DNA from: a virus
DNA: 64,000 bases
IMG/VR virus record: IMGVR_UViG_3300029911_000024
Span: 1-64,000 of that record
Direction: 5' to 3' (one strand)
The translations under genes and the position numbers were made by a program. The notes beneath the pieces are model-generated. The model was given only the letters and a program-made list of their open reading frames with translations, searched no databases and was not told the DNA's origin. Shown here one piece after another: positions 6,687 to 60,295 of the stretch (position 1 is the stretch's first letter; every line of letters starts with the position of its first letter).

Positions 6687-7988
6687 GAACACCTCCTGCT
6701 GATCGACGCCAGTGGCTTCGCGTACCGAGCCTATTTCGGCGGTATCAAGTTTCCGCGCTACCGTGCGGACGGCATGCCCACCGGCACCGTGATTGCCTTC
6801 CTCGAAATGATCCACAGGCTGGTGGGAGACGCGGCGAGAGACCCCGTCAGCCACATCGCGGCAGTTTTCGACAACCGGGAAGCGCCGACCTTTCGCCACA
6901 AGAAATTCCCAGCCTACAAGGGCAACCGGACCCAGCGGGAGCCCGAACTGTCGATCCAGCTACCGGTGATGCGGGACGCCGCGCGGGCCCTGGGCGTTAC
7001 CCCCGTCGAGGCTATCGGCTACGAGGCCGACGATGTCATGGCAACCCTGGCGCGATGGGGTGTCGATGCTGGGCTGCGGGTCACGATTGTCAGCAGCGAT
7101 AAGGATATGGGCCAGCTTGTTGAGGATGACCGGATCGAGATCGTGGACGACCGCAAGGGCATCCGGGTTCTGGCCAAGGACGTCGAGACCAAACTGGGCG
7201 TGCCGCCGCACCTCGTCGCCGACCTGCTGGCGCTGGCGGGCGACACCGCCGACAACATTCCGGGCGCTCCAGGGATCGGCGGCGGGATCGCGGCGAAGCT
7301 GCTGCGCAAACTGGGATCGCTCGATGCCATCCTGGCCGAGGCTGCCAAGAAAAGCGGCTACCGGATGACGGGAGCGGCGAAGCTGTCCATCAACGGGCAT
7401 CGAAAAGAGATCAAACTTTACAGGGAGTTGACAGGGCTCGTCGAAGATATTGACTTAAATGTCAACCTCGATGACCTCGTCGCGGTGCCCTATGTCCCCG
7501 CCCACCTCAAGGAATTGCTGCTGGCGCTGGAAGCCCCCGACGCGCTCCGGCGCATCATGGCGGGCGGCCGGATCGGCGGCACATACGAGGTGGTAGAAAA
7601 AATCGACACCGCCGATATTCTGGTATGGCACGCCAAAGCCCTGGCCGAATATCAGGCCAAGTTGGCCCGGCCGTCGCACAAGATCACTCTGCCCGCGCCG
7701 CCCGACCCGCAATGCGGCTGGTACAAGCGCAAGCTGGTGCAGGACGGTCCCTGGGTTCCGGCCCGCATCTGGCGGGAGCACGCGGGCGACAAGCACGCGC
7801 TGCTATGCACGGTCGGCGACAAGTCGCACAACCCGGCCGACCAATGGGGACGGCTGCTGTCATATCCGATCAGCGAGACGGACTATCAGGCGATGATGAC
7901 CCGGCGGTCCTGGGTCGCCCAGCACGCGCCGCTGGAGCCCGAGGCGAACGAGAACAAACCCGTGAATTATTTGACGCTGCCAGTTTAA
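6681..7988 (+). CDS. 5'-3' exonuclease (PolA N-domain/FEN-like)
   Basis: A 435-residue protein. Recognised motifs: LLLIDASGFAYRAYF (D9), a VFDNREAPTFRHKKF segment around residue 65, EADDVMATL, SSDKDMGQLV, and GDTADNIPGAPGIGG, the helix-hairpin-helix loop. These are the metal-binding and arch elements of FEN/PolA-type 5' nucleases. Only about the first 290 residues belong to the nuclease; the rest is an extra domain of unknown role. The ATG at 6681 is chosen because homology starts there. It probably processes flaps or, with RecT, resects ends for recombination. Confidence 0.85.
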   Translation: MAEHLLLIDASGFAYRAYFGGIKFPRYRADGMPTGTVIAFLEMIHRLVGDAARDPVSHIAAVFDNREAPTFRHKKFPAYKGNRTQREPELSIQLPVMRDAARALGVTPVEAIGYEADDVMATLARWGVDAGLRVTIVSSDKDMGQLVEDDRIEIVDDRKGIRVLAKDVETKLGVPPHLVADLLALAGDTADNIPGAPGIGGGIAAKLLRKLGSLDAILAEAAKKSGYRMTGAAKLSINGHRKEIKLYRELTGLVEDIDLNVNLDDLVAVPYVPAHLKELLLALEAPDALRRIMAGGRIGGTYEVVEKIDTADILVWHAKALAEYQAKLARPSHKITLPAPPDPQCGWYKRKLVQDGPWVPARIWREHAGDKHALLCTVGDKSHNPADQWGRLLSYPISETDYQAMMTRRSWVAQHAPLEPEANENKPVNYLTLPV

Positions 7989-10656: not shown

Positions 10657-10997
10657 CAAAGCCCGTCACCCGCAAGATGGCCGTCGAGTGCCTGCTGCAC
10701 CGGTTAGCCACTGACGCCATCATCGGCAAAGGCGGCGAGATCATCCTTCCGTGCGGCATCTGCAAAGAGCCGCTTCTGCCGGGACAGGCAATCCAATTCG
10801 ACCACACCCACGCCGATACCCACGGCGGCGCGCACAAATACTGGAACCTGCGTCCGGTACATTACGACCCGTGCCATAAGAAAAAGACCAAGGCCGACGT
10901 CCAGGCCAAGGCCAAGGGTGATCGCATCGCTGGGGTCACAAAAACCAAACCGGCAGCAAAGATTCGCAGCCGCAACAATCTTAGGAGACGGCCATGA
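10653..10997 (+). CDS. HNH endonuclease-like protein
   Basis: A 114-residue protein with a compact HNH motif: C34-x2-C37, FDH around residue 50, HKYWNLRPVH (N65), and DPCHKKK. The extra cysteines suggest a structural zinc. The ATG at 10653 is picked for its ATGA overlap with the preceding gene. It could nick DNA in replication or packaging. Confidence 0.75.
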   Translation: MTKPVTRKMAVECLLHRLATDAIIGKGGEIILPCGICKEPLLPGQAIQFDHTHADTHGGAHKYWNLRPVHYDPCHKKKTKADVQAKAKGDRIAGVTKTKPAAKIRSRNNLRRRP

Positions 10998-11602
10998 CAG
11001 TCACCGAGGCAAACCGGTATCCGCTGACGTGGCCCGAGGGCTGGGCACGCACGCCGGATCACATGCGCAAGTCTAGGTCTCAATTCAAAACCACCTTCGA
11101 CAAGGCCCGCCGTGATCTCAACACAGAACTCGACCGCCTGGGCGCGAGCAATGTGGTGATCTCCTCCTGGCTGGCGGTGCGCAATGACGGCAATCCATAT
11201 TCCGATCAGGCCCGCCGCCGCATCCCCGATCCTGGCGTTGCCGTCTATTTCACCTATCGCGGCAAGCAGATGGTTATGGCGCGCGACGCCTACACCAGCG
11301 TGCATGACAACCTGCGCAGCGTCGGGCTGGCGATCCAGCATCTTCGCGGGCTCGACCGTCACGGCGGCGGCACGATGATGGAGCGGGCTTTCGAGGGCTT
11401 TGCCGCGCTGCCATCGCCCGACAGCTTCGATCCCTGGGCTGTTCTGGGTCTTAGGCCAGACGCGAGCAAGGATGCTGTCGATGCCCAGTTCCGTCATCTA
11501 TCGAAGAAACATCACCCAGATCACGGCGGAAAGTCAGAGGATTTCGACAAGCTGGTCAAGGGTCGCAACATGGCGATCAAGCAGATCGAGGCTCGACCGT
11601 GA
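10994..11602 (+). CDS. J-domain (DnaJ-like) protein
   Basis: A 202-residue protein with a C-terminal J domain: DPWAVLGLRPDASKDAVD, then LSKKHHPDHGGK with the HPD signature at residues 174-176. J domains stimulate host Hsp70 (DnaK). The N-terminal 140 residues are of unknown family and probably select the client. Lambda uses DnaJ/DnaK to disassemble its initiation complex, so a replication role is plausible. Confidence 0.8.
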   Translation: MTVTEANRYPLTWPEGWARTPDHMRKSRSQFKTTFDKARRDLNTELDRLGASNVVISSWLAVRNDGNPYSDQARRRIPDPGVAVYFTYRGKQMVMARDAYTSVHDNLRSVGLAIQHLRGLDRHGGGTMMERAFEGFAALPSPDSFDPWAVLGLRPDASKDAVDAQFRHLSKKHHPDHGGKSEDFDKLVKGRNMAIKQIEARP

Positions 11603-11769
11603 AGCTGGGCGATCTGCGCTTCGACACGCCCGACAATGCCTGCCTGTCTCTGCGCACGCTGGCGGAATGGGTCAGAACAGGCGAAATTCTGGTCGCCACC
11701 GCGTCCCATGTGGTGGCATCGCAATCGACACAGATCACCGTTTTTGAGCCCAAGGCAAAAAGGAAATAG
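11599..11769 (+). CDS. small hypothetical protein (GTG start)
   Basis: A 56-residue protein read from a GTG that overlaps the upstream stop (GTGA). It ends with a basic PKAKRK tail and TAG, five bases before the next ATG. It fills the only gap in a tightly packed operon. Function unknown. Confidence 0.55.
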   Translation: MKLGDLRFDTPDNACLSLRTLAEWVRTGEILVATASHVVASQSTQITVFEPKAKRK

Positions 11770-11773
11770 GACG

Positions 11774-12658
11774 ATGGCCGAGGAAAGCGCGATCACATGG
11801 ACCGACAGCACCTATAATCCGTGGATCGGATGCACAAAGGTCGGCCCTGGCTGCGACTTCTGCTATGCCGAGCGCGACAACGACCGCCGCAAATGGGTTG
11901 AAGCCTGGGGCGACGGCATCCCGCGCAAGCGCACAAAGACGTTTAAGGATGTGCGCCAGTGGGAAAGGAACCACGAGCACTTTTTCAATCTGCATCATCG
12001 CCGTCAGCGGGTGTTTTCGGCGTCACTGGCAGATATTTTCGACAACGAGGTCGACGAGACGTGGCGCGACGGCACCTATGATGATGGCAATGGCCATATC
12101 GCCTTCTGGCCACTGGTGAAAGAGACGCCGAACCTCGACTGGTACATCGTCACCAAGCGCATCAGCAATGTACCGAAGATGCTTCCGCCAGATTGGTGCC
12201 AGACAAATTATGGACACATCGTCCTTATCATCACAGTGGTCACACAGAACGAATGGCTACGCGACGGTCCCAGATTAAAAGCGATGAAGTTGCGATTCCC
12301 GTGGCTGCGCGTAGGCCTGTCGATAGAGCCGATGCTCGGGCGCATAGACCTGGGCGGCGACAGTATCCGCTGGCTTGACTGGGTGATCTGCGGAGGTGAA
12401 AGCGATGGCGGCACTGGAACGGCCAGACCTATGGCGACGCAATGGGTCCGGGCCCTTCGCGATCAGTGCGTCGCCTCTGGCGTCCCATTTCATTTCAAGC
12501 AGTGGGGCGAGTGGATACCGACAGATCAGGTTTCCATTTTTGAAACACCGCGCGAAAGCTTCACGGTTTTTCCAAATGGCATCCACGCCGAACGAGCCGA
12601 AAAGAAAGCTGCCGGGCGAAAGGTGGACGGCGTCGAGCACAATGGATTCCCAGCATGA
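11774..12658 (+). CDS. Gp37/Gp68-like (DUF5131) protein
   Basis: A 294-residue protein. TYNPWIGCTKVGPGCDFCY gives cysteines at 20, 27 and 30, the hallmark of the phage Gp37/Gp68 family (DUF5131). WVICGGESDGGTG and HFKQWGEW in the C-terminal half are also characteristic. The cysteine pattern resembles an iron-sulfur/radical-type site, but the reaction is not known to me. The start at 11774 has AGGAAATAGGA upstream. Confidence 0.8.
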   Translation: MAEESAITWTDSTYNPWIGCTKVGPGCDFCYAERDNDRRKWVEAWGDGIPRKRTKTFKDVRQWERNHEHFFNLHHRRQRVFSASLADIFDNEVDETWRDGTYDDGNGHIAFWPLVKETPNLDWYIVTKRISNVPKMLPPDWCQTNYGHIVLIITVVTQNEWLRDGPRLKAMKLRFPWLRVGLSIEPMLGRIDLGGDSIRWLDWVICGGESDGGTGTARPMATQWVRALRDQCVASGVPFHFKQWGEWIPTDQVSIFETPRESFTVFPNGIHAERAEKKAAGRKVDGVEHNGFPA

Positions 12659-46926: not shown

Positions 46927-47145
46927 ATGGCTGGCAAAATTAACTACGCCTATTTGGATGAAAGCCCGGTCGTTTTTGACAACGACAAGGCTTTCGAGTG
47001 GGTGCAGGGACAAACCACGGCAGGGCGCTGGGTGCCGCTGCACATGGCGGATGCGCGCTCCAAGGCGCGGCTGCTGACGGCGTCCGAGTTCAATGACTAC
47101 GCGGCGCGCTCCGGCGCGAGCGGGTGGACAACCCTTTTCCACTGA
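46927..47145 (+). CDS. small hypothetical protein
   Basis: A 72-residue protein with GAGGAGG ribosome site and its own operator promoter. Ends overlapping the convergent polyvalent gene by about 49 bp. Unknown. Confidence 0.55.
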   Translation: MAGKINYAYLDESPVVFDNDKAFEWVQGQTTAGRWVPLHMADARSKARLLTASEFNDYAARSGASGWTTLFH

Positions 47146-48896
47146 TCTGGCAGGCTGTCGCGCGCTGCGCCGTACAGCTTGATCTGCGCCTGGGCGAGCG
47201 CGTCCTTGCCAGGATCGCTATCCGGCAAAGACCGCCACTGCTTGTAAAGCGTATGGCCACCGCCGCCTGATTCACTCTTGGCGTTGATAAGCTCTGGCGG
47301 CGCGAGCAGCACTTCCCCGATCTGGCCATTCTTGAACTGGACGTTCACCGCCCGGTCAAAATACCCAACGTCCGTCGTCTTGTAGCCCTCGTCGGTGGCG
47401 GGGAAATGCTCGGCCAGCATCTTGGCGACCTTGTCGGCCTGCTCCGGGGTGTCGACCGCGAAGGTGCCGCGCACGATGTCGGTCACGCCAGCCGGTTCGC
47501 GCCCGGCCGCCATCTTGGCCAGGGCAGCGTGGAAATCCTTCTCCAGCACGCGCGGCAGCTTCTTGACGCCGGGGCTACGCCACTGCGCGCCCGTCGCGGC
47601 CGCGATTTTATCCCCAACATTGTCGAGCGTCGCCTTGTTGGCTTCCGCGCCAGCATAGACCTGCTCGATGGTTTTGAGCGGGCTGGCCTTGATCCAGCCA
47701 GCCTTGACATCCCGCGCATCGTGCGGGCCCACCGCCTTGGTGCCTGGGCTGTCACCACCGCTCCAGCGGCCGTCATCGTCGCGCGGCTGATCGGGATCGT
47801 ATTTCGCGAAGGCCTTGGCGATCATCTTGCGCAGGCCTTTTTCCTGGGCCCAGTTCTCGTTGATCCCGGCATGGACTTCCGGCCCGAACACCAGCGGGAA
47901 GCTTGGCGGCTCGATGGCGCGCACGTCCTTGCCCTGGGTGTCATAGGACAGGGTGATGTGGGTGAGATATTTGGGCCAGTCGTGCGTCGCGCCAGCCGCC
48001 ATTGCCTCGGCGTGCCGCGCCTGGAGCGCAGGGCTTTGGAAATGAAGCACCACGGCACCCTTGTCGCCAAGGGCTGACAGATGCCGGTGATCGCCCACCG
48101 CCATCACGGTGTCGCTGCGCGGCTCCAGATCGACCGGCTTGCGGCTGTAGACCTGGGTGACATGCATTTCGTGGGGAGGGACGAGGTTGGGGATGCCAGC
48201 CGCTTTCGCCCAGGCGTGCAGCCGGTCGGCGTTGGCCAGCGGCCGGTGGACGTACAGGCTGTCAGGTGCAGCCAGCTTGGTGATGGTTGAGGCGGCCCGC
48301 AACGCATCGCCGAACGAGATCGCCTTCCCAGCGGGCACGCCGCGCCCGACAATGACCTCGTGATATTTCCCGTTTTTGGTGACGTTGACAGCCACAACTT
48401 GGGAAACAGGAATATCCCGCTGCACTATGTTGTCGCCGAACTGGGCAGCGAACTCCCTGGTGGTCGCCCAGTTCTGGGTGGCCTTGGTGCGCTGCAACCC
48501 CACGGCGCGGAACAACGGAATCTTGTCGCCATACTGGGCGCGTAGCACGGTGCGGGTGGCCGCGAAATTGTCGTAAAACTGATTTGGTGTCACCAGCTTG
48601 CTCTTGCCATCCATGATGTCGTCGATGGCAGTGTTGCTGTTTTTGGCGGTGCCATAGGCCGCATCGCTGATCGCCATATAGATCGGCTTGGTGCGCAACA
48701 GATCGGTGTGCGCGGCGACGACAACGGCTGGTGACAGCGTGCTCATTGTTTCTGCGGCTGTGGCGATCTTTTCCGGTGTGGTCGGCTTTGAAAGATCGAA
48801 GCGCAGCGACCCAGCCTGCCGCACATGTTCCTGAAATGCTAAGGCATCTGCGCCAGTCAACGTCCCCTTTTGGCCCAGGGTACGAATGGCATCCAC
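47097..48896 (-). CDS. polyvalent protein: ART-like + Acb1-like + RelA/SpoT-like domains
   Basis: A 599-residue frame (GTG start) that is in phase with, and opens directly after, the amber stop of the gene upstream. Residues about 65-185 resemble an ADP-ribosyltransferase (LFRAVG, NWATTREF, HEVIVGRG). About 210-345 match Acb1, the anti-CBASS 2H phosphoesterase: EMHVTQVYSRKPVD (H245, T247) and YLTHITLSYD (H313, T315). A KYDPDQPRDDDGRWSGG linker follows at 365. About 440-590 resembles a RelA/SpoT-type nucleotidyltransferase (VTDIVRGTFAVDT, GGGHTLYKQWR). It likely counters host defence after entry. Confidence 0.6.
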   Translation of the reverse strand: MDAIRTLGQKGTLTGADALAFQEHVRQAGSLRFDLSKPTTPEKIATAAETMSTLSPAVVVAAHTDLLRTKPIYMAISDAAYGTAKNSNTAIDDIMDGKSKLVTPNQFYDNFAATRTVLRAQYGDKIPLFRAVGLQRTKATQNWATTREFAAQFGDNIVQRDIPVSQVVAVNVTKNGKYHEVIVGRGVPAGKAISFGDALRAASTITKLAAPDSLYVHRPLANADRLHAWAKAAGIPNLVPPHEMHVTQVYSRKPVDLEPRSDTVMAVGDHRHLSALGDKGAVVLHFQSPALQARHAEAMAAGATHDWPKYLTHITLSYDTQGKDVRAIEPPSFPLVFGPEVHAGINENWAQEKGLRKMIAKAFAKYDPDQPRDDDGRWSGGDSPGTKAVGPHDARDVKAGWIKASPLKTIEQVYAGAEANKATLDNVGDKIAAATGAQWRSPGVKKLPRVLEKDFHAALAKMAAGREPAGVTDIVRGTFAVDTPEQADKVAKMLAEHFPATDEGYKTTDVGYFDRAVNVQFKNGQIGEVLLAPPELINAKSESGGGGHTLYKQWRSLPDSDPGKDALAQAQIKLYGAARDSLPDQWKRVVHPLAPERAA

Positions 48897-53685: not shown

Positions 53686-53725
53686 AAAAAAACAGTGGCC
53701 GGTATTCTGTTGCCCGGAACCGGCC
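53686..53725 (-). terminator. tmRNA terminator
   Basis: GGCCGGT (53697-53703) and ACCGGCC (53719-53725) pair; on the minus strand ACTG and seven T follow. It ends the tmRNA transcript shortly after the tag stop codon. Confidence 0.85.
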
Positions 53726-54034
53726 GAACCGCGCCTTCCGCATTAAGCGGCGAGGCGGACTTCTTCGTTGTCGTTGACCTTTACGGTCCTGCTCACCTTG
53801 GCTTGCGCCGTTTCGATCCGGTTCACGCCGTCGATCCTGTTTCGCCCCCAGCAACAGCACACCGACCAGACCTTCAACCGTTGCCGCCCGGTGCCGACCC
53901 GAACCGCTTGGGGAATCGAACCCCGCCCTTTGTCTGTGCCCGGCCAACCGTGCCCGGGGGTGTGCTGGTGGTGGAGGCGGCGGGCACCGCCCCCGCGTCC
54001 GGTCAAGTCGTAATCGAAAACATCAGCTTGCAGT
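53726..54034 (-). ncRNA. ssrA: phage-borne, circularly permuted tmRNA
   Basis: Read on the minus strand, the CCA-bearing piece comes first. GGAC-GCGGG-7 nt-CCCGC is the T-arm position, followed by CGCCTCC-ACCA (53979-53969). After an intervening segment of about 119 nt comes GGGGGCG (53849-53843), which pairs with CGCCTCC over 7 bp, then AAACAGGATCGACGGCGTG, the conserved tmRNA 5' region. ATCGAAAC in this part can pair with GTTTTCGAT in the first piece as the long helix. The tag frame reads VNDNEEVRLAA-TAA (53778-53743), ending in the classic LAA degradation signal. A promoter with operator and a terminator frame it. Confidence 0.88.
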
Positions 54035-54040
54035 GATGGA

Positions 54041-54069
54041 GAGATAGGACGGAATGGCCGAATCGTCAA
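54041..54069 (-). promoter_or_regulatory. tmRNA promoter with operator
   Basis: TTGACG, 17 bp, TATCTC on the minus strand; GGAC-N5-GGCC (54047-54059) lies in the spacer against the -10. It places the tmRNA under the same control as the other operator promoters. Confidence 0.8.
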
Positions 54070-54371
54070 CTGGTGTTAATTTTCTCGCCCCTACTGGATG
54101 GTCGAAAATCCTATCATGTAACTTTTTTCGATCTCGTTCGTGGTGGATTGTCAAAGACTTGCGCAGACATGCACAAGTCGACATGCGAATTATGCCGGAA
54201 CTTATGCGTCTATCCGAGCGCCACCGGGTTGTGCCTGTATCCCGCTGCTGCCCGCCGATCATCGCCCCCCAGCCCCGCATCGACGAGGGAAAGCCAGCAG
54301 CGGGAGGTCTCACACCACCAAAGAAAAAGGCCCCGCCGGTTTCCCAGCGGAGCCTTTCGCCTGCCCGGTGA
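54054..54371 (+). CDS. doubtful small gene opposite the tmRNA promoter
   Basis: A 105-residue frame starting ATGGCCGAA inside the operator. The 3' half has coding-like GC at third positions, but the frame runs through a strong minus-strand terminator and has no plus promoter. Confidence 0.25.
   Translation: MAESSTGVNFLAPTGWSKILSCNFFRSRSWWIVKDLRRHAQVDMRIMPELMRLSERHRVVPVSRCCPPIIAPQPRIDEGKPAAGGLTPPKKKAPPVSQRSLSPAR
54321..54353 (-). terminator. rho-independent terminator
   Basis: On the minus strand GGCTCCGCTGG-GAAA-CCGGCGGGGCC-TTTTTCTTT: an 11-bp stem (two G-U pairs) with a GAAA tetraloop and T tail. It ends the gene at 54381-54683. Confidence 0.9.
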
Positions 54372-54380
54372 ACGGCGGAA

Positions 54381-54683
54381 TTATACGACGGTGATCGTGC
54401 CCTGGGTATCCTCGGGATCGACGATCTCGCCCTCGAAATCGACGGTGACGACGTCGCCATCGGCATATGTGGTCACAGCGGTCAGGGTGAACAGGCCGTC
54501 GGTCGTGCCAGCCACAAAGGTGGCCGACAGGCCGTCAGCGGCGGGCGTCAGCGCCACAGCGCCAGCAGGCGTCACGCTCCAGGCAGGCACAATGCCAGCG
54601 GGCAGCGGGCGCGCGACGCCATTGGCATCGGTGAGGGCCAGGGTCGCCGTGTGGCTGGAGCCCTGGATAAAGTTCTGAGTCAT
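54381..54683 (-). CDS. Ig-like decoration protein
   Basis: A 100-residue beta protein (MTQNFIQGSSHTATLALTD, GLSATFVAGTTDGLFTLTA, VTVDFEGEIVD). The bacterial-Ig/BIG-like pattern is common in capsid or tail decorations. It has its own operator promoter and terminator. AAGGAAAGA precedes the ATG. Confidence 0.6.
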   Translation of the reverse strand: MTQNFIQGSSHTATLALTDANGVARPLPAGIVPAWSVTPAGAVALTPAADGLSATFVAGTTDGLFTLTAVTTYADGDVVTVDFEGEIVDPEDTQGTITVV

Positions 54684-54750
54684 GGCGATCTTTCCTTGCC
54701 CGTCGAAAATGAAAATGAACCCGATGCGGCGCGGGGGCGAACACCGACAC

Positions 54751-54786
54751 AGGTATCTGAGGATTTTGCAGATGGACAACATGGCC
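54751..54786 (-). promoter_or_regulatory. promoter with operator over the -35
   Basis: GGACAACATGGCC (54774-54786). On the minus strand TTGTCC is followed after 17 bp by ATACCT (54751-54756). It drives the Ig-like gene. Confidence 0.6.
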
Positions 54787-54822
54787 GGTTGTTTTACGCC
54801 GATCTCGAAAAGCCGCAAGCCC

Positions 54823-55062
54823 TCATTCGCCGCTTTCGTTGCCATAATCTTTGCAGCACGGGCCCAGCCAGACACCGCCATGGATGCGACGCCAACCTTC
54901 CGCTGCCGCCAGCCTGCGCATGATGATGTAATCCTCGCCAACGGTGTGAAACCCGCCAGGGAACAGCGCACCGGATTTGGCGCAGCCGTCGCAGTCCAGC
55001 GTCATCGACAGCAGCATCAGCGGGCCGTCAGGATTCGGGATGCTGGTGAGGCGCTGGACCAT
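54823..55062 (-). CDS. small Cys-rich protein
   Basis: A 79-residue protein (LDCDGCAKSGALFPGG, VWLGPCCKDYG). Start overlaps the HNH gene stop (TGATG). The cysteines suggest a metal site. Unknown. Confidence 0.5.
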   Translation of the reverse strand: MVQRLTSIPNPDGPLMLLSMTLDCDGCAKSGALFPGGFHTVGEDYIIMRRLAAAEGWRRIHGGVWLGPCCKDYGNESGE

Positions 55063-58561: not shown

Positions 58562-60295
58562 TCAGCGGGCCGTGACGACAAACGGGTTCTCCTGCTGAAA
58601 TTCCTTGTTGATGCCCAGGTTGAGCCCGGTGCCAGGATCGACCTGGGGCTCCAGATGGGACAGCACATAGCCGTCGGCGTCGTCCGGGCTGGGCACGCGG
58701 CGCGCAGCAAGCTGCTGCTTGGTCTCGATCACGATCTTGCCGGTGTTGTTGCGGAACCACTTTGGCGTCGAAAGCTGCATCATCAGCGTGCCGTCGTCCG
58801 GCAGCAGCGCGCACTCCTCCAGCTTTTGCTCGATCCCGCCTTCCTGCTTGGTCAGCCACAGGTAATGCAGATGGCTGCGCTGGATCGCGGCGCGCGCCAG
58901 CCACCAGATTTCCGCCTTGAGATTGCCGAACTTCTCGACGCTGGTGGTCCCGTCGGGCCATACGCGGTTGCTGGGCGGCACGCCAGTGTTGATCGGATAG
59001 ACGGCCTTGATCTTGGGATACTGGGTGCGGTCGACCTTGGTGAGGGTGGACAGCACGCCAGCGCCGACGCCGGGCACGTCGAAATTGAGGAATTGCGTCC
59101 CCGCTTCCTTCATGCAGTCCAGCATCCAATAGGCCGTGTCGGTGGTGTCGGCTTCCTGGCGGCGCTGGATCGGCAAACAGATCGGGCCGAACCGGTGGAC
59201 GCAGACCGATTTCGCCTTGCCCGCGCCCACGTCGCCCCCGGTTATGCCGACCTTGCTGGGTGTGAACATGACGCCGAACTGCTTCATCAGGTCGACAGCG
59301 GACTGCACCCATTTGCCTGGGATCGCCATGCCCTCGGTCGCGGCGGTGTAGCTGATCTCGTATTCCGCGTCCCAGGTGGACGGGTCCGACATGCTGGCTT
59401 TTTTCTTGGCCGCCCATTCCGGTGTCTTGCGCGGATCGGCCGAGTAATGCAGCCGGAAGATCGAGCCGATGATATTGGCCAGCGCAGCGCGCTTGCGAGC
59501 AAAGAAATTTGCCAGCCCGCCGCTCTCCGGATTGGGCGTCGAGACCCAGCCGATGCAATCGGTATTGCCGCTGATCGCCGCCTCGACCTTCTGGGGATGC
59601 GCCAGGAACGCGGCCTCGTCGACCACATACATGGTCGAGCGGCCACCGCGCCCAGGGTTTTCGCCGGTCTCGCCCGTCACCACCGCGCCAGTGACCGGGT
59701 TGGTAAACTGCATGATGTTGTCGTGTTTTCGCTCGTTGAAGCCGTCCGGCAGCATCCACGGCGGCAGGCGGCGATAGATCACCCGCAGTTTCTCGAAAAT
59801 GCTGTCCGGATTGCCCTTGCTGTCGACGTTCAATTCGTCGCGCGAGCAGAATGTGGCCTTGAATCCCGGGGTGAACAGCCAGCGCCACGTCACATAGGCG
59901 CAGATCAGGTACGTCGCGCCCTGGTCGCGGGACTTCTCCAGCAGCCACGGCTCGCCCTTGCTGACCTTGTCGTGCAACCAAAGAATGAATTTGCGCTGTT
60001 CCGGCCACAGCTTGAACCGGATGTATGGCGTCTTGTTTTCGGCGATCAGGCGCGGGTCGAATGTCCAGGCCCAGTTATCAAACCAATATAGGACGTCCTT
60101 GGCGCACTTGGCCTTTTCCTCGGCATAGGACTTAGCGCGGTTTCCGACCCTGGCCTTAAACTCGCGCTCTGTGACCTTGCGCTGCGCTTCGGCTTCGATC
60201 CGGTCGATATGAGTTTGCAGCAGGCGGTCGAGATAGTCGGCAGCCTTACGAGAATTGACCACTCGCGATAGCAGCTTTGGCAAGTCGGAGGGCAT
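58562..60295 (-). CDS. terL: terminase large subunit
   Basis: A 577-residue protein. FKLWPEQRKFILWLHD (Q-motif-like), WLLEKSRDQGATYLI (variant Walker A), RSTMYVVDEAAFL (Walker B, D226-E227) and VGITGGDVGAGKAKS (start of the nuclease domain). It powers packaging and cuts DNA. ATG 60295 is chosen over an upstream extension that overlaps the small subunit fully. The 3' end is close to the portal start. Confidence 0.85.
   Translation of the reverse strand: MPSDLPKLLSRVVNSRKAADYLDRLLQTHIDRIEAEAQRKVTEREFKARVGNRAKSYAEEKAKCAKDVLYWFDNWAWTFDPRLIAENKTPYIRFKLWPEQRKFILWLHDKVSKGEPWLLEKSRDQGATYLICAYVTWRWLFTPGFKATFCSRDELNVDSKGNPDSIFEKLRVIYRRLPPWMLPDGFNERKHDNIMQFTNPVTGAVVTGETGENPGRGGRSTMYVVDEAAFLAHPQKVEAAISGNTDCIGWVSTPNPESGGLANFFARKRAALANIIGSIFRLHYSADPRKTPEWAAKKKASMSDPSTWDAEYEISYTAATEGMAIPGKWVQSAVDLMKQFGVMFTPSKVGITGGDVGAGKAKSVCVHRFGPICLPIQRRQEADTTDTAYWMLDCMKEAGTQFLNFDVPGVGAGVLSTLTKVDRTQYPKIKAVYPINTGVPPSNRVWPDGTTSVEKFGNLKAEIWWLARAAIQRSHLHYLWLTKQEGGIEQKLEECALLPDDGTLMMQLSTPKWFRNNTGKIVIETKQQLAARRVPSPDDADGYVLSHLEPQVDPGTGLNLGINKEFQQENPFVVTAR

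What the first reader, a model, noticed from the sequence alone, without database searches (positions are those of the whole stretch)
53726..54034. A phage genome carries a permuted, two-piece tmRNA (ssrA)
Acceptor strands GGGGGCG and CGCCTCC pair over 7 bp, GGATCGACGG matches the tmRNA D-arm region, the encoded tag ends NDNEEVRLAA-stop, and the CCA-bearing piece lies upstream of the GGGGGCG piece, as in alphaproteobacterial split tmRNA. Phage genes lie on both sides and the promoter carries the phage operator, so it is not a host attachment site. Phage tmRNAs are known in a few mycobacteriophages; a permuted one in a phage is, to my knowledge, unusual.
Basis: partly seen in the sequence, partly recalled or inferred. 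Interest (0 to 1): 0.95.

Follow-up and report, generated by a model that had tools for sequence, protein, structure and literature searches.

The report
Permuted tmRNA gene in a phage
A virus of bacteria carries its own copy of the split RNA that frees stuck ribosomes, under what looks like the virus's own on/off switch; such copies are already known from other phages, so this is a well-supported new example with some unusual details.

Summary
On the minus strand, 54073-53694 matches Rfam alpha_tmRNA (85.3 bits, E 1.2e-21) and tmRNA_permuted (72.6 bits); ARAGORN misses it. The CCA piece (ends 53969) precedes the GGGGGCG piece (starts 53849), with a 119-nt intervening segment. The acceptor stem pairs over 7 bp including G3-U70. 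The tag is VNDNEEVRLAA-stop and a terminator follows. The record is a 66.8-kb tailed-phage contig. A related phage (L090/G003, terminase 70% identical) carries the same gene between the same neighbours, with both mature pieces 93-95% identical and the intervening segment about 30%, so the RNA is under selection. No integrase was found. Unusual here: a Val (GUC) resume codon, a tag found in no sampled host, phage-operator control, and a lineage-specific T-arm-like hairpin in the intervening segment. Processing and function are inferred. New member of a known kind.

The parts
54064..54069 (-). -35 element TTGACG of the tmRNA promoter
   Evidence: sequence; 17-bp spacer to TATCTC; TTGACG-17-TATATC in the relative G003
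54044..54062 (.). phage operator (ATAGGAC-N5-GTCCTAT type; here ATAGGACGGAATGGCCGAA on the + strand, 11 of 14 positions) overlapping the spacer and -10
   Evidence: recurs in promoter register at 1971, 42796, 43927 and 52270; 6 sites of at least 11/14 against 0.9 expected; relative's tmRNA promoter has a 13/14 site
54041..54046 (-). -10 element TATCTC
53969..54033 (-). acceptor (CCA) piece of the tmRNA: half of the helix joining the pieces, T-arm GCGGG-GGCGGUG-CCCGC (53996-53980), acceptor 3' strand CGCCUCC + ACCA (53979-53969); mature 5' end not known
   Evidence: RF01849/RF04321 alignment; about 95% identical to the relative L090
53850..53968 (-). intervening segment of 119 nt, predicted to be removed; closed by a 9-bp helix CAGCACACC (53967-53959) / GGUGUGCUG (53863-53855) next to the acceptor stem
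   Evidence: fold; such helices exceed swapped-partner controls across 53 phage-type segments
53910..53924 (-). T-arm-like hairpin GGGG-UUCGAUU-CCCC inside the intervening segment
   Evidence: also in the relative with a different stem (AUAGG-UUCGAUG-CCUAU); in none of 50 other phage segments
53743..53849 (-). mRNA-like piece: acceptor 5' strand GGGGGCG (53849-53843), D-region, helix strand GAUCGAAAC (53818-53810), pre-resume region, tag
   Evidence: RF01849/RF04321; 93% identical to L090
53743..53778 (-). tag reading frame GUC AAC GAC AAC GAA GAA GUC CGC CUC GCC GCU UAA = VNDNEEVRLAA*
   Evidence: sequence; L090 has VNDNEEVRIAA
53697..53725 (-). 3' hairpin GGCCGGU...ACCGGCC with the conserved loop sequence GGCAACAGAA
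   Evidence: RF01849 alignment; motif positions
53686..53692 (-). run of seven U: intrinsic terminator with the preceding hairpin
   Evidence: sequence; inferred, not listed by the simple terminator scan, whose loop limit is 8
54381..54971 (-). upstream phage gene; the longest ORF is 196 aa, no family match
   Evidence: homologous DNA in L090
52567..53112 (-). downstream ORF of 181 aa, no family match; homologous DNA in L090

Best explanation
This is a phage-borne, circularly permuted tmRNA (ssrA) gene of alphaproteobacterial type. Host RNA polymerase transcribes it from a phage promoter controlled by the phage's own operator (sequence evidence). The precursor of about 350 nt folds so that the intervening segment is a hairpin stacked on the acceptor stem (folding and comparative evidence). 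The segment is then cut out, by RNase P at the 5' end of GGGGGCG and by 3' trimming to CCA, leaving two pieces held by the acceptor stem and the second helix (inferred from bacterial two-piece tmRNAs). Host alanyl-tRNA synthetase charges it through G3-U70, host SmpB delivers it to stalled ribosomes, and the nascent chain receives A-VNDNEEVRLAA for proteolysis (inferred). Its likely benefit is extra rescue capacity and recycling of ribosomes and amino acids during infection, switched on with a set of phage transcripts.
For: Two Rfam models match. Every functional element is intact: CCA, 7-bp acceptor with G3-U70, tag ending in LAA, stop, terminator. The tmRNA is syntenic in a related 67-kb phage (portal, head-morphogenesis and HNH side), its mature pieces are 93-95% identical, the intervening segment about 30% and the upstream DNA 35-50%. 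Unconstrained folding of the whole transcript recovers the acceptor stem and the inter-piece helix. The operator-promoter match is shared with other phage promoters in both genomes. Phage context: terminase, portal, head, tape measure and tail genes; no tyrosine integrase or large serine recombinase. Precedent: two-piece tmRNAs in phages (PMC9004378).
Against: No RNA data. The Rfam score is low beside host genes (75-85 bits against mostly 185-262 in Sphingomonadales). ARAGORN misses it. The region before the resume codon is shorter than in hosts (71 nt against 84-87). No phage SmpB, so it depends on the host's. Processing, charging and tagging are untested. Only one clearly distinct relative is available.
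Confidence: 0.85

Rival explanations
1. A decoy or modulator: the phage RNA competes for host SmpB, alanyl-tRNA synthetase or ribosomes and dampens or redirects host trans-translation, rather than adding rescue capacity.
For: Low similarity to host tmRNA outside the tRNA-like core and a shortened region before the resume codon. A tRNA-like-domain-only tmRNA of mycobacteriophage DS6A type has been shown to inhibit tmRNA (PMC4131195; PMC11915505).
Against: The tag frame, stop codon and LAA/IAA ending are kept in both relatives; a pure decoy would not need them.
Confidence: 0.1
2. A non-functional passenger: an ssrA gene picked up from a host by imprecise excision or transduction and decaying.
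For: Low covariance-model score; phages do pick up ssrA fragments (discussed in PMC9004378).
Against: Selective conservation of the mature parts against the intervening segment in a relative whose terminase has diverged to 70% identity; integration into the phage operator-promoter set; intact acceptor, tag and terminator.
Confidence: 0.04
3. An attachment site or a prophage edge: the gene is the host's ssrA beside an integrated element.
For: ssrA is a favoured integration site (PMC11915505, PMC4131195).
Against: Phage genes on both sides, whole gene rather than a 3' fragment, same position in a second phage, no tyrosine integrase or large serine recombinase, sequence unlike that of any sampled host.
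Confidence: 0.01

Closest known systems
Alphaproteobacterial two-piece tmRNA (Rfam RF01849; Caulobacter type)
   Same: gene order (CCA piece first), 7-bp acceptor with G3-U70, T-loop of the GGCGGU type, D-region GGATCGACG, NDN tag ending in AA, GGCAACAGAA near the 3' end
   Different: Val (GUC) resume codon instead of GCN in every host whose tag could be read, shorter pre-resume region (71 against 84-87 nt), 119-nt intervening segment against 5-50 nt in the sampled Sphingomonadales; phage operator in the promoter
Two-piece tmRNA of methylophage Melnitz and pelagimyophage Mosig (PMC9004378)
   Same: phage-borne permuted ssrA of alphaproteobacterial type; in Melnitz at an early promoter
   Different: myophages of streamlined marine bacteria, with a glutamine riboswitch; here a siphovirus-like phage with a palindromic operator
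Unannotated permuted tmRNA of Mesorhizobium phage Cp1R7A-A1 (MT188704.1)
   Same: 37-nt core around the T-arm and CCA 97% identical; RF01849 112 bits, intervening segment with closing helix, terminator
   Different: tag VAANDNHFEARALAA as read by ARAGORN, unrelated flanking genes, 131-kb phage
tmRNA of mycobacteriophages Bxz1, Wildcat, DS6A and others (PMC4131195)
   Same: tmRNA carried by a phage
   Different: phages of a different bacterial lineage (DS6A has the tRNA-like domain only); actinobacterial tmRNAs are of the one-piece form (own knowledge)

Membership tests
permuted (two-piece) tmRNA, alphaproteobacterial type (RF01849/RF04321) | covariance-model match over the gathering score | tested here: met
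   85.3 bits (cut-off 50) and 72.6 bits (cut-off 47)
permuted (two-piece) tmRNA, alphaproteobacterial type (RF01849/RF04321) | CCA-bearing piece upstream of the tag-bearing piece with an intervening segment between | tested here: met
   CCA ends at 53969, GGGGGCG starts at 53849, minus strand; 119 nt between
permuted (two-piece) tmRNA, alphaproteobacterial type (RF01849/RF04321) | alanine identity: G3-U70 in a 7-bp acceptor stem, discriminator A | tested here: met
   GGGGGCG/CGCCUCC-ACCA
permuted (two-piece) tmRNA, alphaproteobacterial type (RF01849/RF04321) | short tag frame ending in a hydrophobic AA tail and a stop | tested here: met
   VNDNEEVRLAA*; relative VNDNEEVRIAA
permuted (two-piece) tmRNA, alphaproteobacterial type (RF01849/RF04321) | inter-piece helix and pseudoknots | tested here: inconclusive
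   the inter-piece helix is recovered by folding; pseudoknots not modelled
permuted (two-piece) tmRNA, alphaproteobacterial type (RF01849/RF04321) | processing to two stable RNAs | not testable with these tools
   needs RNA from infected cells
phage-encoded tmRNA | located in a phage genome, not a host ssrA or an attachment-site fragment | tested here: met
   virus record, structural genes around, syntenic in a second phage, no integrase, tag region not in 151 sampled Sphingomonadales genomes
phage-encoded tmRNA | acts in trans-translation | not testable with these tools
   no SmpB in the phage; would depend on host SmpB

The most novel reading that the evidence does not exclude
This phage lineage has made tmRNA part of its own regulon: operator-controlled transcription, a tag of its own starting with Val from a GUC resume codon, and an intervening segment with a tRNA-like T-arm (in the relative perhaps a whole cloverleaf) that takes part in maturation or acts as a second RNA product. 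This would give phage-specific tagging or regulation of ribosome rescue rather than a simple copy of the host function.
Probability: 0.15. Interest if true: 0.6.

Novelty: new member of a known kind. Interest (0 to 1): 0.36.

Why it matters
It adds a well-supported, selectively conserved case to phage-borne two-piece tmRNAs, in a siphovirus-like phage of probably alphaproteobacterial (perhaps Sphingomonadales) hosts. It also shows that the gene is wired into a phage operator-promoter set, which argues for use during infection. The distinct tag makes the question of what phage tmRNAs do testable: peptides ending in VNDNEEVRLAA can be told from host tags by mass spectrometry. It also shows that ARAGORN alone undercounts phage tmRNAs.

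Tried and rejected
ARAGORN as a test of the gene: negative here and in several viral loci that plainly hold the gene, so its silence is not evidence of absence. A near-palindrome ACTTGYGCA-N4-TGCRCAAGT at 54157-54178 was first taken for the 'phage operator': it has no second copy in the window and is only partly kept in L090; the real recurring operator overlaps the -10. Attachment-site reading: rejected. A whole tRNA in the intervening segment of the window: not found. In L090 the segment gives only a sub-threshold tRNA-Sec match, 17.1 bits, E 0.22, so it is left as a lead. Closer relatives: patterns from the tag region and the CCA piece found only the two contigs already known. No plasmid match and only one phage-record match by DNA.

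Full report
What was checked. The finding names a permuted two-piece tmRNA at 53726-54034 in a phage. cmscan of the whole window gives exactly two matches over gathering score, both at this place on the minus strand: alpha_tmRNA RF01849 (54073-53694, 85.3 bits, E 1.2e-21, whole model) and tmRNA_permuted RF04321 (54022-53743, 72.6 bits). ARAGORN finds nothing. The window is part of a 66,819-base virus record.

Anatomy, 5' to 3' on the minus strand. The promoter is TTGACG (54069-54064), 17 bases, TATCTC (54046-54041). The acceptor piece ends in CGCCUCC-ACCA (53979-53969). A 119-nt intervening segment follows. The mRNA-like piece starts with GGGGGCG (53849-53843), then AAACAGGAUCGACGG. The tag GUC AAC GAC AAC GAA GAA GUC CGC CUC GCC GCU UAA (53778-53743) reads VNDNEEVRLAA. 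A hairpin GGCCGGU...ACCGGCC carries the conserved GGCAACAGAA, and seven U follow. The acceptor stem has seven pairs with G-U at the third position, the alanine identity element (established knowledge of tRNA-Ala and tmRNA). Folding the whole transcript without constraint recovers the acceptor stem and the helix joining the two pieces.

Phage context. PHROGs gives terminase, portal, head morphogenesis, HNH endonuclease, major head protein, tape measure, central tail fibre, RecT and exonuclease. The tmRNA and head genes lie on the same strand. No tyrosine integrase or large serine recombinase is present in this record or its relative; a small resolvase-type gene lies in the last 2.8 kb of the record.

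Comparative evidence. IMG/VR holds one near-identical contig (L072/L089) and one clear relative, IMGVR_UViG_3300038465_000068 (67,052 bases; L045/L090/G003), whose terminase is 70% identical. The relative has the tmRNA at the same place, tag VNDNEEVRIAA. Between the two, the acceptor piece is 95% identical, the mRNA-like piece through the stop 93%, the promoter 79%, but the intervening segment only 30% and the DNA upstream of the promoter 35-50%. This is the pattern expected if the mature RNA is under selection. Patterns from the tag region and the acceptor piece find no further viral contigs, and the tag region with up to 3 mismatches is in none of 151 sampled Sphingomonadales genomes. All 81 sampled Sphingomonadales genomes have their own ssrA, nearly all with much higher scores, 185-262 bits. 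Where the tag could be read, all of those used a GCN resume codon and tags such as ANDNEAFAVAA. A Sphingomonadales host is suggested only weakly, by one binned contig with a terminase relative.

The operator. A 19-bp palindrome ATAGGAC-N5-GTCCTAT occurs in the record at 6 sites with at least 11 of 14 matches, against 0.9 in shuffles, and 4 sites with at least 12 against 0.1. Five of the six lie on the minus strand exactly between a -35 (TTGTAC, GTGACA, TTGAAG, TTGCCA, TTGACG) and a -10 (TATATC/TATATG/TATCTC) with 17-base spacing; the last of these is the tmRNA promoter at 54044. In the relative the same motif has 17 sites of at least 11, among them the tmRNA promoter with 13 of 14 and TTGACG-17-TATATC. 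The scoring motif was taken from the data, so the shuffle numbers are a guide, but the second genome and the promoter register are independent support. The tmRNA is therefore probably controlled with other phage transcripts. The regulator was not identified.

The intervening segment. In 53 distinct segments of at least 50 nt, nearly all from viral contigs and phage Cp1R7A-A1, the two ends pair over a mean of 10.3 bp against 6.7 when partners are swapped (highest mean of 200 swaps 7.2). The closing helix is thus a general feature of these genes and argues for one folded precursor. Only this record and its relative also have a hairpin with a UUCGAUN loop, like a tRNA T-arm, with different stems (GGGG/CCCC and AUAGG/CCUAU). 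None of the 50 others does, and shuffled sequences give 0.3 per 52. In the relative the whole segment can be drawn as a cloverleaf, but Rfam gives it only 17.1 bits, E 0.22, and in the window only the hairpin is left. I leave this as an unexplained lead.

What is known. PMC9004378 (2022) describes a two-piece permuted tmRNA in methylophage Melnitz and counts 53 two-piece tmRNAs in 18,146 phage genomes, 50 of them from marine or aquatic samples. PMC11915505 (2025) lists 79 bacteriophage tmRNA sequences of all forms. PMC12656738 reports tmRNAs in virulent Bradyrhizobium phages. Here 86 IMG/VR stretches carry the core GGGGCGAAAYAGGATCGACG, and a tag frame can be read in 80 of the 86; some may be host fragments or duplicates. 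Mesorhizobium phage Cp1R7A-A1 has an unannotated one (RF01849 112 bits).

Verdict. It is a real phage-borne permuted tmRNA gene, very probably functional, and a new member of a known kind. The Val resume codon, phage-operator control and T-arm-like hairpin are the parts worth a specialist's attention. Shown: sequence, model match, synteny, selective conservation, operator recurrence. Inferred: transcription, processing, charging by alanyl-tRNA synthetase, SmpB dependence, tagging and benefit to the phage.

Noticed in passing
window 1971, 42796, 43927, 52270, 54044 (minus-strand promoters); G003 3586, 47630, 47950, 48536, 58603, 60165: A phage-wide promoter-operator set: TTGNNN-17-TATATC with ATAGGAC-N5-GTCCTAT in the spacer. 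The regulator is unknown.
   Followed up: partly
window 53910-53924 (-); L090 about 7016-7032: T-arm-like hairpin with a UUCGAUN loop inside the tmRNA intervening segment, kept with a different stem in the only relative; in the relative the whole segment resembles a tRNA cloverleaf (tRNA-Sec model 17.1 bits, E 0.22).
   Followed up: partly
window 47097-48896 (-): 599-aa protein with an Acb1 (anti-CBASS) domain by Pfam (E 1.4e-37), called RNA ligase by PHROGs: a likely counter-defence protein.
   Followed up: no
L002 2917-3302 (MT188704.1 about 58677-59062): Mesorhizobium phage Cp1R7A-A1 has an unannotated permuted tmRNA; the record also carries a gene annotated as tRNA splicing ligase about 1.3 kb away.
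   Followed up: partly
window 54157-54178: Single near-perfect palindrome ACTTGCGCAGACATGCACAAGT upstream of the tmRNA promoter, in a block partly kept in L090; no second copy in the window.
   Followed up: partly
L045 6185-6253: ARAGORN calls a tRNA-Asp with the odd anticodon atc about 0.3 kb beyond the tmRNA in the related phage.
   Followed up: no
L007, L016, L019, L027, L034, L049 and other IMG/VR loci: In many viral contigs the permuted tmRNA is followed directly by tRNA-Arg(tct) and often tRNA-Ile(tat), and ARAGORN draws tmRNA and tRNA-Arg as overlapping; a recurrent phage tmRNA-tRNA cassette.
   Followed up: no
window 10994-11602 and 11636-12658 (+): DnaJ-domain protein next to a DUF5131 protein.
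   Followed up: no
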